Assembly: GCA_016179045.1 (NCBI GenBank)
Contig: JACOSL010000006.1
Coordinates: 1 to 64,000, forward strand
DNA from: Fimbriimonas ginsengisoli
GTDB lineage: Bacteria; Armatimonadota; Fimbriimonadia; Fimbriimonadales; Fimbriimonadaceae
DNA length: 64,000 nucleotides
Direction of reading: 5' to 3'
Under the pieces are notes generated by a model. It was given only the letters and a program-made list of their open reading frames with translations, was not told where the DNA came from and did not search any database. Shown here piece by piece: positions 3,323 through 54,115 of the stretch. A program made the translations under genes and the position numbers. Every line of letters starts with the position of its first letter. Positions within the stretch are counted from its first letter, which is position 1.

Positions 3323-4705
3323 CTATTCTCCCAGCGAGTGGGTGAGGTCCACCCGGCTGTATACCTTCGCGCCGATCTCGTCCGTCATCGCCGCCACGAT
3401 CCGCTGGGCTACCTCGTCTCGAAGCGCGCCGTCGCGCGCCTCGACCATGACCCGCACCATGGGTTGGGTACCGCTCGCTCGCACGACCAGACGCCCGCCA
3501 GTTCCTAGAGCCGCTCGGCCCTCCTCCAGGGCGGCGCACACCGCACGGCCTTGATCCCATCCGGCAAGAGCCGATACATGAACGTTGACCAACAGCTGCG
3601 GCCAGGCCCCGTAGGCGTCGATGAACGTGGACGCCGGGCAGCCCGCCTGCCTCAAGACGCCCAAGAACTCGAGCATCGTGACGAGGCCATCGCCGGTCGG
3701 CCCGTGGTGGGGGAACACGATGTGCCCGCTCTGCTCGCCCCCGATCTGTGCACCGGTTTCGTCTAGCTTTTGCGACACATACTTGTCGCCAACCGGCGTA
3801 CGTTCGAGGCCAATGCCGTTGCTCCGGAGGTATTCCTCAAATCCGCCGTTGCTCATCACGGTGCCGACGACCGTTGGTGGGTGAAGGCCGCCGTCGCGCT
3901 GACGGTGGGTGGCCCAAACTCCCATAGTTCGATCGCCGTTGATGAGGCGTCCCGTCTCGTCGCTGAAAACTGCCCTGTCAGCGTCGCCATCGAAAGCCAC
4001 CCCGACGTCGCTCCCGCTCGCGACCGTCGATTGCTGGATGACATGGGGCTTGGTCGCGCCGCCCTCGGCGTTGATGTTCATCCCATCGGGGGTCACGCCT
4101 ATTGGCGAAACGATCGCCCCTAAAGCGCGCAGCACTCGAGGAGCCAACTCATGTGCCGCCCCATGGGCGGCGTCGACCGCCACCTTTAGACCGGCTAGGC
4201 CCTCGGGAACGATGCCGAGGAGAAACGCCATATAGGCTTCGATCAGCTCGGTATCGGGGTGCAGATATCCCACGTCCGCGCCGGAAAAGCGGTCTGCCGG
4301 CACAGCGCCGAGGAGGGCCTCGATGAGGAGCTCCGCCTCGTCCGACAGCTTTCGTCCGTCGTGGCCGAGGAACTTGATGCCGTTGTCGGGGGCAGGGTTA
4401 TGGCTGGCCGAGATCACGACGCCCAGTCCAAATTCGCCTGTCCGCGCTGCGAACGACACCGTAGGCGTGGGCACGACCCCGAGGGTGGCGACCTCGATGC
4501 CGGCGCTGCAAAGCCCGGAGGCGAGGGCAGCGCCAAGCATCGGGCCGCTACGTCGGGTGTCGCGTCCGATGACCGCTCGCCGGGTCAGGCCTTGCTCGCG
4601 CATCCACCGGCCCGCCGCCATCCCGAGGGATAGAGCCAACTCGGGAGTAATCGTCTCATTGGCGACGCCTCGCACGCCGTCGGTGCCGAAGAGGCGACGG
4701 CTCAC
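3323..4705 (-). CDS. glmM: phosphoglucosamine mutase
   Basis: A 460-residue alpha-D-phosphohexomutase that interconverts glucosamine-6-phosphate and glucosamine-1-phosphate on the way to UDP-GlcNAc for peptidoglycan. It begins MSRRLFGTDGVRGVANE, as GlmM proteins do. The phosphoserine loop is VISASHNPAPDNGIKF, the metal-binding loop is AFDGDADRAVF, and the sugar-binding loop GGEQSGHIVF is present. The phosphate-binding loop reads RASGTQPMVRVM, with Gln where most GlmM have Glu. The start overlaps the grpE stop by 4 nt, indicating coupled translation. Confidence 0.96.
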   Translation of the reverse strand: MSRRLFGTDGVRGVANETITPELALSLGMAAGRWMREQGLTRRAVIGRDTRRSGPMLGAALASGLCSAGIEVATLGVVPTPTVSFAARTGEFGLGVVISASHNPAPDNGIKFLGHDGRKLSDEAELLIEALLGAVPADRFSGADVGYLHPDTELIEAYMAFLLGIVPEGLAGLKVAVDAAHGAAHELAPRVLRALGAIVSPIGVTPDGMNINAEGGATKPHVIQQSTVASGSDVGVAFDGDADRAVFSDETGRLINGDRTMGVWATHRQRDGGLHPPTVVGTVMSNGGFEEYLRSNGIGLERTPVGDKYVSQKLDETGAQIGGEQSGHIVFPHHGPTGDGLVTMLEFLGVLRQAGCPASTFIDAYGAWPQLLVNVHVSALAGWDQGRAVCAALEEGRAALGTGGRLVVRASGTQPMVRVMVEARDGALRDEVAQRIVAAMTDEIGAKVYSRVDLTHSLGE

Positions 4706-49310: not shown

Positions 49311-52298
49311 ATGCCAACCAAGAAACCCACGAATTCAGAACCTGTCCCAGATCCGATCGAGCCGACTACTCGAACAAACGACGACGCGCTGCCTAGCGCC
49401 ACCAAGAAACCGGCTCGTAAGAGCGCAATCAAGCGCCTGGCCGAAGCCACCCAGCGGGTGATGGAAACGGTCGCAGGGGTGGTTTCGCCTCCTCATGTCG
49501 AATCGGTGGCCGAGAGCGGCAAGAAGCCGCCGGCCAGAGCCCGGCGGGGAGGCAAGGCCCTTGCGGCCGATCTCCCCGCTGCCGAACGCGACCTGCCGGT
49601 ACCCACTTGGCGAACACCGCTACGCCCCGCAACATCAAAGGCTGCACCGCAGCAAGAGGTCGCTTCGGAGCCCCGAGGACGTCGTCGAAGGGGACGCAGA
49701 ACCGAGGAGGCCGCACCAACGGAGCAACAGGAAGTGCCACAGGTGCAGATGCGCCAGCCCCGGCGCAGACTGGTGGCCAAGGAACCCGAAAGGGCGCCCC
49801 TGCCGCCCCCCAAGCCGATTCTGCCGATCCCCACGGATGCTCCTCAGGTCATCGTTCGGGATGGCGTCCCCACGCTCGTTCGAGACGGTCGGGCGTACCC
49901 GCCCATCTTCTTCTTTGGAAACGCTTCCGACGAGAGTCGGGTTGGCACCGTGCTCGAGGAGGTGCGCCTTGCCGGAGAGGCCGGAGTTCATGTTCACTCG
50001 CTCCTCATTGAATTCGAAGTCGACCTCGGTGCGGTCGACGCCGCGGTTCGGCTCGCAAGCTACTTGCTCGCCAAGGTGATCGAATCCGATCCCCAGAGCC
50101 AAGTCCTGTTTCGGCTGGTATTCCTTGCACCCAAGGGATGGACGGAGCGTTACCCAAACGCCGCGTTTCGAACCGCCGAGGGCTCGCTAGCCGAACCGAG
50201 CGTATGCGACGATCAGTTTTGGGGCGTCGCCAAGGAGTGCCTGGGCCTGTTCACCCGAGCCATGCGCTCGCTCGGGCAGCGAGACCACATCCTTGGGCTC
50301 CATTTGGAGCGAGGCGAATGGTTTTTCGCCGCCGACTGGGGCTACGACACGTCGCAGGCAGCGGTCGAGCACTTCCGCCAATGGGCCCGCGCGCGCTACA
50401 GCGAGGACGAAGTTGCCCTTCGCGCCTCTTGGTTCGATGGCTCGGCGCGCTTCGACAATCTGACGATTCCACCGTTCGCACCGGAAGGCGCGGAGGACGA
50501 GAAGTTCGTTCGCGCGAGCCGGAAACAGCGCCGCCACGTGGACTACCAGCTATTTCTCTCCGACGCAACGGTTGCCCGAATAGGAGACCTCGCTTTCGCG
50601 GTTAAGGAGGCAAGCGACGGTTACTTCGTAGTTGGGGTGAGCTACGGCTACACGTTCGAGTGGTCGCACCCGTCCAGCGGCCATCTCTCGCTGGGCAAGC
50701 TGCTGCGCACGCCGGAAATCGATCTGATCGCGGGACCGCCCAGCTATCGCTCGCGCGAACCAGGCGGTACTGCCCCCTTTCCCGGCCCAATCGATAGCTT
50801 TGCCCTCAACGGCAAGCTGTTCGTAAGCGAGGAAGACTTCAAGACCTCCATCGGCCAAGGGCTATCCCCGGACGACTTTAACCCCGTGATCAAGACTCCG
50901 CAGGCGCTGGAGAGCGTGCAGTGGAGGGGCGGAGGCGCGGCGCTCGCCCACGCGGGGGCGGTCTGCTGGATGGACCTGTGGAGCAACGGCTGGCTCAAGA
51001 CGGCCAGCATCTGGAGCCGGGCGGCCAAGGTTCGCGAGGCCCTGATCATGAGGATGGGCGCGCCGCTTGCCGATCCGGACGTGATTGTGTTTATCGACGA
51101 GCGCGCCTTGGCGTATCTGGTCGATCCAAAGGCCTTCCAACTGCTGATCCAAAGTGTTCGCGAGTCGGTCCTCCGCGCGGGCCTCAACGCGGGCTTCTAC
51201 CTGCTGAGCGACCTTGCCCACCGCGAGAAATTTCCGGAGGCCAAGCTCTACCTGTTCCTCAATGCTTGGGATATCCGCCCAGAACTGCGCGCGGCGATCA
51301 AGGCAAGGCTGCACCGTGACAACAAGCTGATCTTCTGGCTCTACTCCGCCGGGTTGTTCGACTCCGGGCGCGACTCGCTCGAACGGGCTCGCGAAGTCAC
51401 CGGCATTGCCCTGCGACCTCAGCCGTTTCACTCCAAGATGGGTACGACCTTGCTCAATCGCCGCCACGCCCTTACCGAGTCGTTTCCAGACCGAGCGCTC
51501 GCGGGGGGCGTCAAGCTCGAGCCAAGCTACTTCGCGATCCCGGAGGAAGCCACCGTACTCGGCGAGTACACGCAGACCGGTCTTCCCAGCTTCGTGATCA
51601 AGGAATTCCGAGAAGAAGGAGACTCGGAACTCGCATGGCGCTCCGTGTTCATGGGCGAGCCGGTCGTGACCCCCGCCCTGCTGCGCGCATTGGGCCAGCT
51701 CGCAGGCGCGCACGTCTGGAGCTTCCAGGACGATTTGGCGCACATACGCCCGCCGTTCCTCACCGTGCATTGCGGCGGCGCTGGAGCGCGGACCCTCGCG
51801 CTGCCCGACAATGCCTCGGCTTACAACGTTCTCACCAAGGAGTGGGCGTCGACCGAGGGTACGAGCCTCCGATTCCAAGCGGTGGACGGCTCCACCCACG
51901 TGTTCCTCGTCGGCATCCGCGAGGAGTTGGAGCATTTGCTGGCGCTCGACCCGGCCGATCTGCTGCGGATCGACGAACTCCCCGCCAAAGCAGAGGACAC
52001 GGTCCGCACCGATACGGTCGCCTTCGACGTGCCGATCATGAAGCTCGACGTGTGGATGGAAGGCGGCGACCTGGACGAGGGCGCCGACGATTGGCTGCTC
52101 CATCCGGGCGTCATCGAGGAGCCAGCCGCGGAGGAAGAGGAGGCGGACGACCGCCCCGGCCGGCGTCGTCGTCACCGCCGTCGCAATGACCGTGCTGCGG
52201 TCAAGACCCCCGATTTTCGGGGCGAGGCGGTCGAAAGGGTCATCGAAGACGTGGACGACGACCTCGGGCTCCACGTGATGTTTCGCAGGCGGAACTAA
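49311..52298 (+). CDS. large GH42-like beta-galactosidase-fold protein with charged tails
   Basis: A 995-residue protein. Residues 1-190 are disordered and basic (RKSAIKRLAEATQRV, RGRRRRGRRTEE, QPRRRLVAKEPER). Residues about 195-600 resemble a GH42-type TIM barrel (AYPPIFFFGNASDESRVG, ILGLHLERGEWFFAADWG, NGKLFVSEEDFKTSIGQ), then a GATase-like domain (SVRESVLRAGLNAGFYLLSD, FPEAKLYLFLNAWDIRPELR). The C-terminus is acidic, then RRRRHRRRNDRAAVK, like the RNA-binding ends of RNase E/G. No signal peptide, so it should be cytoplasmic. It precedes era. Catalytic Glu assignment and substrate are uncertain. Confidence 0.65.
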   Translation: MPTKKPTNSEPVPDPIEPTTRTNDDALPSATKKPARKSAIKRLAEATQRVMETVAGVVSPPHVESVAESGKKPPARARRGGKALAADLPAAERDLPVPTWRTPLRPATSKAAPQQEVASEPRGRRRRGRRTEEAAPTEQQEVPQVQMRQPRRRLVAKEPERAPLPPPKPILPIPTDAPQVIVRDGVPTLVRDGRAYPPIFFFGNASDESRVGTVLEEVRLAGEAGVHVHSLLIEFEVDLGAVDAAVRLASYLLAKVIESDPQSQVLFRLVFLAPKGWTERYPNAAFRTAEGSLAEPSVCDDQFWGVAKECLGLFTRAMRSLGQRDHILGLHLERGEWFFAADWGYDTSQAAVEHFRQWARARYSEDEVALRASWFDGSARFDNLTIPPFAPEGAEDEKFVRASRKQRRHVDYQLFLSDATVARIGDLAFAVKEASDGYFVVGVSYGYTFEWSHPSSGHLSLGKLLRTPEIDLIAGPPSYRSREPGGTAPFPGPIDSFALNGKLFVSEEDFKTSIGQGLSPDDFNPVIKTPQALESVQWRGGGAALAHAGAVCWMDLWSNGWLKTASIWSRAAKVREALIMRMGAPLADPDVIVFIDERALAYLVDPKAFQLLIQSVRESVLRAGLNAGFYLLSDLAHREKFPEAKLYLFLNAWDIRPELRAAIKARLHRDNKLIFWLYSAGLFDSGRDSLERAREVTGIALRPQPFHSKMGTTLLNRRHALTESFPDRALAGGVKLEPSYFAIPEEATVLGEYTQTGLPSFVIKEFREEGDSELAWRSVFMGEPVVTPALLRALGQLAGAHVWSFQDDLAHIRPPFLTVHCGGAGARTLALPDNASAYNVLTKEWASTEGTSLRFQAVDGSTHVFLVGIREELEHLLALDPADLLRIDELPAKAEDTVRTDTVAFDVPIMKLDVWMEGGDLDEGADDWLLHPGVIEEPAAEEEEADDRPGRRRRHRRRNDRAAVKTPDFRGEAVERVIEDVDDDLGLHVMFRRRN

Positions 52299-52301
52299 AG
52301 G

Positions 52302-53192
52302 GTGGCGCATCGAATGGGCTTCGTCGCCCTGATCGGCAAGCCTAACGTTGGCAAAAGCACCCTCCTAAACCGGATCGTGGGGCAAAGAGTGTCGATCGTG
52401 AGCGACAAGGCTCAGACGACTCGCCGTAAGGTCATTGGCATCGCCACCACGCCCGATTACCAGATCGCCTTTCTCGACACGCCCGGGGTGCACGAACCGC
52501 ACACGCGGCTCGGTCGCGCGATGCTCGATGCGGGGCGAAGCGCCCTCGACGAGGCGGATGTGGTCGTCGCGGTGGTTGACGCCTCCCACCATCCGGGCGC
52601 GATGGACGAGCGCATCGCCCAGATGATCGGCGAACTTGCCCGAGCGAAGCCCGTGGTGCTGTGCCTAAACAAGATGGATGTGCTGAAGGCCGATAACGTC
52701 GAGCGCAACGTTGCCGCTTACACCAAGCTCTTTGGTGTGGACGATGGGATGCTGACCACCGCGACCCGGGGGCATAACGTGGACTTGCTGGTCCGGCTGA
52801 TTGTGGATCGCCTACCCGAACGACCGCCCGTCTTCGAGGAGGACGCCTTTACCGACCAATCCACGCGCTTCATGGTCGCCGAAATCATCCGGGAGAAGAT
52901 CTTGCGAGCAAGTCGGCAGGAGATTCCACATGCCACGGCAGTCGTGGTCGAGGCCTGGGATGAAGAGCCCGAAATCACTCGCATCGAGGCGACCATCGTG
53001 GTCGAAAAGCCGAGCCAGAGGGCCATTTTGATCGGCAAGCACGGCGCGTTCTTGCGGCGCATCGGGACCGAGGCTCGCGCCGAGATCGAGGAGCTGCTGG
53101 GCCGCCACGCATACCTGGGCTTGCACGTCAAGGTCCAAGAGGATTGGCGAATGAGCGAGCGCGTGCTGAACGAAATGGAGTACGAGCGGTGA
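52302..53192 (+). CDS. era: GTPase Era
   Basis: A 296-residue ribosome-assembly GTPase. GKPNVGKST (G1), DTPGVHEPH (G3) and NKMD (G4) are in the GTPase domain; the C-terminal KH domain has ILIGKHGAFLRRIGTEAR, ELLGRHAYLGLHVKVQEDWR. The GTG start at 52302 is used because it leaves room for an AAAGG near the start; ATG at 52314 (MGFVALIGKPN) is an alternative. It lies 3 nt after the stop of the large GH42-like gene and its stop overlaps the next GTG start. Confidence 0.93.
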   Translation: MAHRMGFVALIGKPNVGKSTLLNRIVGQRVSIVSDKAQTTRRKVIGIATTPDYQIAFLDTPGVHEPHTRLGRAMLDAGRSALDEADVVVAVVDASHHPGAMDERIAQMIGELARAKPVVLCLNKMDVLKADNVERNVAAYTKLFGVDDGMLTTATRGHNVDLLVRLIVDRLPERPPVFEEDAFTDQSTRFMVAEIIREKILRASRQEIPHATAVVVEAWDEEPEITRIEATIVVEKPSQRAILIGKHGAFLRRIGTEARAEIEELLGRHAYLGLHVKVQEDWRMSERVLNEMEYER

Positions 53193-54115
53193 ACCAGCGG
53201 GACGTCGAAGACCTGTTTGGCGGGCCGTTGCGGGCAGACCCTTACATTTCGCTCAAGGCCCCGCCTCTGCCCGATGCCAAGATCGGCCCTCTGCCTAAGA
53301 TTCAGTTCGTCATCGAGTTCGTCGGGCCACGATCGATCTCAGGGGCAAGCGCCAACGCGCTTGCCGAACCCCAACTACGCTCCGCGCTGGGCAGCCCCGA
53401 GGTTTGGACCATGAACCAGTCCTCGAACGAGTGGGCGCCGTTGCGGGCAAACGTCAACATCACCTACGACTCGCTCGCGGTCGCTTGGGACTTGATAACG
53501 GATGCGGGCACGATGACAACCGCCAGCGCGCGCCAGCTGTTGGCAGCCGTCGAGCGGTTTGCCACCGACGTTCAGCGAAGGGCGATGCCGATGCCCGTAC
53601 CCGAGAGCGTCGACCCGCTCGTGCGGCACTGGATCGCGGTCCGAGAGTCGCTGGACATCGGGTTCTCCATGGCGGTTGCGCGCGACGGCGACGACCTGGC
53701 CGAGCGGGAGATCTGGAGGCTATGCGCAGCCCTGGGTTTGAACTTAGGGCCGACCGGCGCTTTCGAATGGCGGATCGAAGGTTGGGAGCATCCGCTCCTT
53801 GCCGTCACCCCCCTAGAAGCTGACGCCTTCTCCCTTCGCGACGTAAACCTCGACGCGAAACACCGAGGCCTCGGCCTCGGCTTCAACGTGCCGCGATCCC
53901 CCAGCCCGTCTGCCTCGCTCGAAGGCTGCTTTGGCATTGCCAACCAGTTCGCCTTGCGTACCGGAAGCAAGCTGTTCGACGACACCATGGCGCCGATGAC
54001 GCCGGCCGATCAGGAGAGCCTACGCTCCGACCTGAATGAGGCGGTGAAGGCTCTTGCCAGCGCCGGGCTGACCCCCGGCTGCTCCGAAGCCCTCAAGCTG
54101 TTCGGCGCGGCCTAG
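53189..54115 (+). CDS. hypothetical protein with possible ZipA C-terminal-like domain
   Basis: A 308-residue protein whose GTG start overlaps the era stop (GTGA). The C-terminal half reads WIAVRESLDIGFSMAVARDG, DLAEREIWRLCAALGLNLGP, DAFSLRDVNLDAKHRGLGLG, FNVPRSPSPS, GSKLFDDTMAPMT, a pattern of hydrophobic, Gly and Asp residues like the FtsZ-binding ZipA C-terminal domain. The N-terminal half (KIQFVIEFVGPRS) is beta-rich, and there is no membrane helix, whereas ZipA is anchored. This is a weak, pattern-based resemblance. Its stop shares a CTAG with the convergent SecDF gene. Confidence 0.5.
   Translation: MNQRDVEDLFGGPLRADPYISLKAPPLPDAKIGPLPKIQFVIEFVGPRSISGASANALAEPQLRSALGSPEVWTMNQSSNEWAPLRANVNITYDSLAVAWDLITDAGTMTTASARQLLAAVERFATDVQRRAMPMPVPESVDPLVRHWIAVRESLDIGFSMAVARDGDDLAEREIWRLCAALGLNLGPTGAFEWRIEGWEHPLLAVTPLEADAFSLRDVNLDAKHRGLGLGFNVPRSPSPSASLEGCFGIANQFALRTGSKLFDDTMAPMTPADQESLRSDLNEAVKALASAGLTPGCSEALKLFGAA

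What the first reader, a model, noticed from the sequence alone, without database searches (positions are those of the whole stretch)
49311..52298. GH42-like catalytic fold joined to RNase-E-like charged tails, next to era
A barrel/GATase-like body is flanked by a 190-residue Arg-rich tail and an acidic plus RRRRHRRR C-terminus, with no signal peptide. The neighbour is era, a ribosome-maturation GTPase, three nt downstream. A cytoplasmic sugar-active fold associated with RNA or ribosomes would be new.
Basis: inference. Interest (0 to 1): 0.6.

Follow-up and report, generated by a model that had tools for sequence, protein, structure and literature searches.

The report
Sugar-enzyme fold with RNA-protein-like tails
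Nearly every sequenced bacterium of the class Fimbriimonadia, and many others in its phylum, carries one copy of a protein with a sugar-cutting-enzyme (GH42) fold but long arginine-rich floppy tails like those of RNA-handling proteins, usually encoded directly before the ribosome gene era; some lineages have lost its catalytic residues yet keep the protein nearly unchanged, so it has probably been recruited for a second job, most likely with RNA or ribosomes, which remains untested.

Summary
The 995-aa ORF (49311-52298) has a confidently predicted GH42-type body (residues ~160-900; best PDB matches are GH42 beta-galactosidases) between two disordered, Arg-rich tails. Orthologues occur as a single copy in 87/88 good-quality genomes of the class and across the phylum Armatimonadota, with tails of the same kind; paralogues of the same fold lack them. 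era lies directly downstream (usually within 30 nt) in 65 of 70 class loci, but not in two families of the class nor outside it. In the class the protein always ends in (F/W)R, usually FRKR (70/70). In ~1,700 ORFs from 69% of one complete genome, the only other C-terminus with FR[PK][RK] is that of PNPase, where the motif is conserved phylum-wide. Both catalytic glutamates are usually kept, but were lost at least three times; the largest such clade stays under strong purifying selection (dN/dS ~0.02). So the conserved role is not catalysis alone. Best explanation: a GH42-fold protein recruited as a non-secreted component of an RNA-processing or ribosome-linked assembly, as enolase and aconitase were. 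RNA binding and partners are inferred, not shown.

The parts
49311..52298 (+). GH42-fold protein with Arg-rich disordered tails, 995 aa, single-copy core gene of Fimbriimonadia
   Evidence: ORF; orthologues in 107/113 class genomes; Pfam GH42 E=0.02 for this protein, 6.7e-9 for orthologue L047
49311..49760 (+). N-terminal disordered, Arg/Lys/Pro-rich tail (residues 1-150), starting MPTKK like most relatives (MPRKK)
   Evidence: pLDDT <50; composition; tails in orthologues
49821..52010 (+). folded body, residues 171-900: (beta/alpha)8 barrel, GATase-like (beta-galactosidase trimerisation type) domain, C-terminal beta domain
   Evidence: AlphaFold2 model and Foldseek to GH42 beta-galactosidases
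50316..50318 (+). codon of Glu336, putative acid/base, just after barrel strand 4 (motif LERGEW)
   Evidence: E in 68/73 orthologues and 12/12 paralogues; position after strand 327-333
50829..50831 (+). codon of Glu507, putative nucleophile on barrel strand 7 (motif SEEDFKT)
   Evidence: E in 70/73 orthologues and 12/12 paralogues; strand 503-509
52062..52295 (+). C-terminal disordered tail (residues 918-995): acidic block, then GRRRRHRRRNDR
   Evidence: pLDDT <50; composition
52269..52295 (+). extreme C-terminal motif LHVMFRRRN (family consensus: aliphatic-x-(F/W)-R, usually FRKR)
   Evidence: present in 70/70 class members, 0/24 outside the class; similar to the PNPase C-terminus
52302..53192 (+). 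era, ribosome-maturation GTPase with KH domain, 3 nt downstream
   Evidence: Pfam; linkage in 66/70 class loci, 65 on the same strand

Best explanation
The gene encodes a cytoplasmic GH42-fold protein recruited to a housekeeping role in RNA processing or ribosome maturation. The folded body is a former or still active glycosidase. The two disordered, Arg-rich, charge-blocked tails bind RNA or drive condensation, and the conserved C-terminal (F/W)R(K/R) motif docks onto a protein partner. That partner may be shared with PNPase, whose C-terminus carries a similar motif, for example an RNase E/G-type hub. Co-expression with era puts it in the ribosome-maturation gene set in three families. In most lineages the body keeps both catalytic glutamates and may still cut or sense a sugar, much as enolase and aconitase keep enzymatic folds as degradosome clients; in others only binding is left. 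Shown: fold (by prediction), tails, motif, linkage, single-copy conservation, retention under selection without the catalytic pair. Inferred: RNA binding, condensation, the partner and the RNA/ribosome role.
For: Fold. Tails in orthologues throughout the phylum and absent in 12/12 paralogues. Such tails are rare: in 2.0 Mb (69%) of complete genome G018, the clearest other real genes with Arg/Lys-rich disordered C-tails are PNPase and ribosomal protein S1. C-terminal motif 70/70 in the class; PNPase ends FRP[RK]R in all 28 full-length class loci including the window's own genome (L238), and a match to F-R-P-x-R-stop lies just behind PNPase in 23/23 genomes outside the class; across ~1,700 G018 ORFs only PNPase and this protein carry [FW]R[KP][RK] in the last 10 residues, 0.37 expected; Rho of G018 starts MTHTFRPRKG. 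RNase E/G present in 30/31 relatives. era directly downstream. Catalytic Glu lost in three events, one clade spanning several genera, with core dN/dS 0.016-0.017 in pairs L116/L117 and L041/L115. Precedents: enolase and aconitase as degradosome clients, arginine-rich SLiMs that bind RNA, PNPase binding at the extreme C-terminus of RNase E (PMC11964227; PMC10412687; PMC10989914).
Against: No RNA-binding, interaction or localisation data exist. The era linkage is absent in two families of the class and outside it, where neighbours are a PpaX-like HAD hydrolase, MtaB, FabF or others. PNPase keeps its FRPRR end in Armatimonadota whose GH42-like protein lacks the motif, so the two do not covary. 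The motif was defined after seeing the sequences. The exact Rho form FRPRKG was found by pattern at Rho in only two genomes. Polycationic tails can bind DNA, polyphosphate, lipids or acidic glycans as well. dS is near saturation in some pairs.
Confidence: 0.5

Rival explanations
1. An ordinary cytoplasmic GH42-like glycosidase whose charged tails tether it to an acidic substrate or surface (acidic oligosaccharide, membrane phospholipid, cell-wall precursor). era is a chance neighbour kept by operon inertia, and the enzyme-dead lineages keep a lectin-like or regulatory use.
For: Both catalytic glutamates kept in most orthologues and all paralogues; the fold is that of active beta-galactosidases; paralogues are multi-copy ordinary enzymes, several apparently secreted; era linkage not universal.
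Against: Single copy in almost every genome of the class; neighbours are not sugar-pathway genes; Glu-lost clades persist across genera with dN/dS ~0.02; tails of this kind are otherwise seen on S1 and PNPase in the sampled genome.
Confidence: 0.3
2. A nucleoid- or polyphosphate-associated protein: the Arg-rich tails bind DNA or polyphosphate rather than RNA, and the GH42 body is a structural oligomer (trimer) that makes the tails multivalent.
For: Arg/Lys clusters separated by Pro/Ala/Glu resemble generic polyanion-binding tails; the GATase-like domain of GH42 is a trimerisation domain (general knowledge; fold match).
Against: RG-type C-tails (e.g. KRRRRGGRGRGRRR in L046/L060) and the PNPase-like end point to RNA proteins; linkage to era.
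Confidence: 0.1
3. An enzyme acting on a sugar attached to RNA or to a ribosomal protein, brought to its target by the tails.
For: Catalytic pair conserved in most lineages, RNA-protein-like tails, era linkage.
Against: No substrate known; some lineages have lost the pair while keeping tails and core.
Confidence: 0.05

Closest known systems
GH42 beta-galactosidases (e.g. PDB 3tts, 4oif/5dfa, 1kwg)
   Same: Barrel + GATase-like domain + C-terminal beta domain over ~770 aligned columns, TM 0.69 by target length; short profile match to 4oif/5dfa; Glu after beta-4 and on beta-7.
   Different: 11-14% identity; acid/base motif is GEW without the Asn directly before the Glu; disordered tails on both ends; catalytic Glu lost in some lineages; window protein itself below the Pfam cut-off.
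GH42-fold relatives: Ignavibacterium album beta-1,2-glucosyltransferase (7vl3) and GH164 beta-mannosidase (6t7g)
   Same: Same overall domain order and fold.
   Different: Known enzymes act on free oligosaccharides and are not known to have Arg-rich tails; the I. album enzyme is described as a GH35 protein (PMC8861115).
Tailless Armatimonadota paralogues (L075-L086)
   Same: Same fold and same GEW / E-D-D-x-R-T catalytic motifs; about 27-32% identical to the window protein.
   Different: No tails, several with apparent signal peptides, multi-copy; separate clade with full support.
RNase E-type RNA degradosome with metabolic-enzyme clients (enolase, aconitase)
   Same: A metabolic-enzyme fold linked to RNA-protein-like features; Arg-rich charge blocks; short terminal docking motifs (PMC11964227, PMC10412687).
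   Different: Here the enzyme fold itself carries the tails; no interaction has been shown.

Membership tests
GH42 / clan GH-A | (beta/alpha)8 barrel followed by GATase-like trimerisation domain and C-terminal beta domain | tested here: met
   AF2 core pLDDT ~95; Foldseek full-length match to GH42 enzymes, E 5e-23
GH42 / clan GH-A | Catalytic Glu after beta-4 and on beta-7 | tested here: met
   E336 after strand 327-333, E507 in strand 503-509; conserved in most orthologues, lost in 15 sequences of three clades
GH42 / clan GH-A | Asn directly before the acid/base Glu (N-E) | tested here: not met
   Window and most relatives have G-E-W (a few N, H or R before E); paralogues mostly NTGEW
GH42 / clan GH-A | Score above curated Pfam GH42 cut-off (21 bits) | tested here: inconclusive
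   Window 14.7 bits; orthologue L047 36 bits; others 13.6-20.6 or no hit
GH42 / clan GH-A | Beta-galactosidase (or other glycosidase) activity | not testable with these tools
   needs an assay
RNA degradosome client | Physical association with RNase E/G or PNPase | not testable with these tools
   only a shared terminal motif
RNA degradosome client | Candidate hub (RNase E/G) and PNPase encoded in the same genomes | tested here: met
   RNase E/G in 30/31, PNPase in 41/41 relatives
RNA degradosome client | Docking motif covaries between the two proteins across the phylum | tested here: not met
   PNPase motif phylum-wide, GH42-protein motif only in the class

The most novel reading that the evidence does not exclude
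Armatimonadota have their own RNA-processing assembly in which a GH42-fold protein, with RNA-binding tails and (in Fimbriimonadia) a PNPase-like terminal docking motif, is a structural or sensory subunit coupled to ribosome maturation through era. This would be a glycosidase fold converted into an RNP component, with enzyme-dead versions in some genera.
Probability: 0.25. Interest if true: 0.85.

Novelty: new variant of a known kind. Interest (0 to 1): 0.62.

Why it matters
It would be a core gene of a whole bacterial class, widespread in its phylum, in which a carbohydrate-enzyme fold appears to have been turned into part of the RNA or ribosome machinery, with intact and enzyme-dead orthologues side by side. 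That offers a natural experiment on how metabolic enzymes are recruited to RNA complexes, an open question since enolase and aconitase were found in degradosomes. It also gives a short, testable terminal motif as a handle on RNA decay in a phylum for which nothing on this was found in the library searched.

Tried and rejected
Single-sequence PDB search: no hit; NCBIfam: none. Whole-genome Arg-run DNA pattern: no more than the reversed control, uninformative. The idea that such tails are common in this lineage was rejected by scanning 2.0 Mb of G018 (most high scorers look like over-extended starts or antisense ORFs). The idea of a chance era neighbour in one genome was rejected. The idea that the C-terminal motif covaries with PNPase across the phylum was tested and not supported. 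Presence outside Armatimonadota was not tested, apart from one scan of genome contigs limited to close relatives, whose two hits were both Fimbriimonadales.

Full report
1. The observation. The ORF at 49311-52298 (+) encodes 995 aa; era begins at GTG 52302, three nt after its stop. The N-tail (1-170) has 22 Arg and 12 Lys, 16% hydrophobic residues and net charge +14; the C-tail has an acidic block, then GRRRRHRRRNDR, and a terminal LHVMFRRRN. AlphaFold2 on a 60-sequence alignment gives a body of residues ~160-900 at pLDDT ~95 and tails (1-149, 918-995) below 50.

2. Distribution. Of 61 relatives searched, 56 have a match, all 50 good-quality genomes among them. In the class, 107 of 113 genomes match, 87 of 88 of good quality; nearly always one copy, at 37-66% identity. 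In a phylum sample, 55 of 76 good-quality genomes match: a high-scoring orthologue group (33-40% identity, in families f8, f12, f17, f26, f28, f37) and many lower-scoring paralogues. A tree of 96 sequences separates orthologues from 12 paralogues with full support, and the orthologues follow the genome groups. The class is Fimbriimonadia, inferred from the named relatives L001 and L002 (Fimbriimonadaceae, Fimbriimonadales).

3. Fold and active site. Pfam GH42 is sub-threshold for the window protein (E=0.02) but clear for orthologue L047 (E=6.7e-9). The family profile picks GH42 beta-galactosidases 5dfa/4oif from the PDB by a short stretch (E=0.0023). Foldseek matches GH42 enzymes over ~770 columns (3tts E=5e-23, TM 0.69 by target), then the I. 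album glucosyltransferase and GH164. Glu336 follows barrel strand 4 and Glu507 lies in strand 7, the positions of the catalytic pair in clan GH-A (general knowledge of the clan); they are conserved in 68/73 and 70/73 orthologues and in 12/12 paralogues. The Asn that normally precedes the acid/base Glu in clan GH-A is missing, so this is a GH42-fold relative rather than a strict GH42 member.

4. Tails. Orthologues throughout the phylum have long Pro/Ala/Glu-rich tails with Arg/Lys clusters; outside the class many C-tails are of RG type (KRRRRGGRGRGRRR, KKRRRRGGKKHRKRKE). A strict run test finds Arg/Lys clusters in 81 of 94 N-tails and 81 of 94 C-tails, and in 0 of 12 paralogue C-termini. In the class every one of 70 sequences ends with aliphatic-x-(F/W)-R, usually FRKR[ED]; none of 24 outside does. 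In 2.0 Mb (69%) of complete genome G018, among ~1,700 ORFs, only this protein and PNPase have [FW]R[KP][RK] in the last ten residues (0.37 expected); both have Arg-rich disordered tails. PNPase ends FRP[RK]R in all 28 full-length class loci, including the window's own genome. In 23 of 23 genomes outside the class a match to F-R-P-x-R-stop lies shortly behind the PNPase match. Rho of G018 begins MTHTFRPRKG followed by an Arg-rich stretch, and ribosomal protein S1 of G018 has a KKRKKGRKGR tail. PNPase, Rho and S1 were identified from family matches and, for S1, by its repeated S1 domains as read from the sequence. These parallels were noticed after the fact; the conservation within each protein is independent of that.

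5. Neighbourhood. era is adjacent in 66 of 70 class loci: same strand in 65, with a gap of -10 to +30 nt except one genome at 242 nt (read twice); in L006 era is inverted. A few genomes are represented by two overlapping loci, so the counts are of loci, not of genomes. era is not adjacent in families f2 and f4 nor outside the class, where a PpaX-like HAD hydrolase (f2, f4, f8), MtaB or FabF lie nearby. era is therefore a strong, lineage-restricted partner, and no sugar pathway is linked in the loci that were examined.

6. Pseudoenzymes. Fifteen sequences lack Glu336, Glu507 or both (e.g. L116/L117/L044: Asn and Leu; L111/L112: Gly with Leu or Met). With the catalytic columns masked, the tree needs three changes; the largest clade covers 13 rows from several genera. 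Pairs inside it show core dN/dS of about 0.016-0.03 (L116/L117 0.038/2.41; L041/L115 0.021/1.20; L044/L117 0.071/2.41), like Glu-intact pairs (L023/L025 0.022, L120/L121 0.019). Tails and terminal motif are kept. The conserved function thus does not depend on the catalytic pair in these species.

7. Interpretation. The simplest account is a GH42-fold protein recruited into a non-secreted, general cell function that needs its tails and C-terminal motif. RNA processing or ribosome maturation is favoured by era, by the RNA-protein type of tail and by the PNPase-like end. Precedents are enolase and aconitase as degradosome clients, Arg-rich RNA-binding SLiMs, condensation through Arg-rich charge blocks, and PNPase docking at the extreme C-terminus of RNase E (PMC11964227, PMC10412687, PMC10989914). 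RNase E/G and PNPase are encoded in these genomes. Against it: no biochemical data, no covariation of the motif between this protein and PNPase across the phylum, and the promiscuity of polycationic tails. I put the RNA/ribosome role at about 0.5 and a specific PNPase-type assembly at about 0.25.

8. Novelty. No paper on such a protein was found in the library. The kind 'metabolic enzyme fold associated with RNA machinery' is known; an enzyme fold that itself bears the tails, with enzyme-dead orthologues, is a new variant.

Noticed in passing
L228-L257 (PNPase loci); genomes: PNPase of Armatimonadota ends in a nearly invariant FRP[RK]R, after an RG/RD-rich disordered tail in much of Fimbriimonadia; a phylum-wide C-terminal motif with unknown partner.
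   Followed up: partly
L218:9832-11217 (+): Transcription terminator Rho of genome G018 starts MTHTFRPRKGEGQGGSRRGRRSR, a similar FRPR motif at the N-terminus; also found by pattern at Rho of G022.
   Followed up: partly
53144-54115 (+): Gene after era encodes a protein with a ZipA_C (FtsZ-binding) domain match, E=6e-8; homologues follow era in a subset of relatives.
   Followed up: no
L006:99-3254 and 3334-4368: In genome G013 era lies on the opposite strand, convergent with the GH42-fold gene: inversion or misassembly.
   Followed up: no
L048-L057, L059: In families f2, f4 (class) and f8 (outside it) a PpaX-like HAD hydrolase gene lies immediately upstream; possibly the older linkage.
   Followed up: partly
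L138:10490-12214 (+): Ribosomal protein S1-like protein of G018 with long acidic N-tail and KKRKKGRKGR-type C-tail.
   Followed up: no
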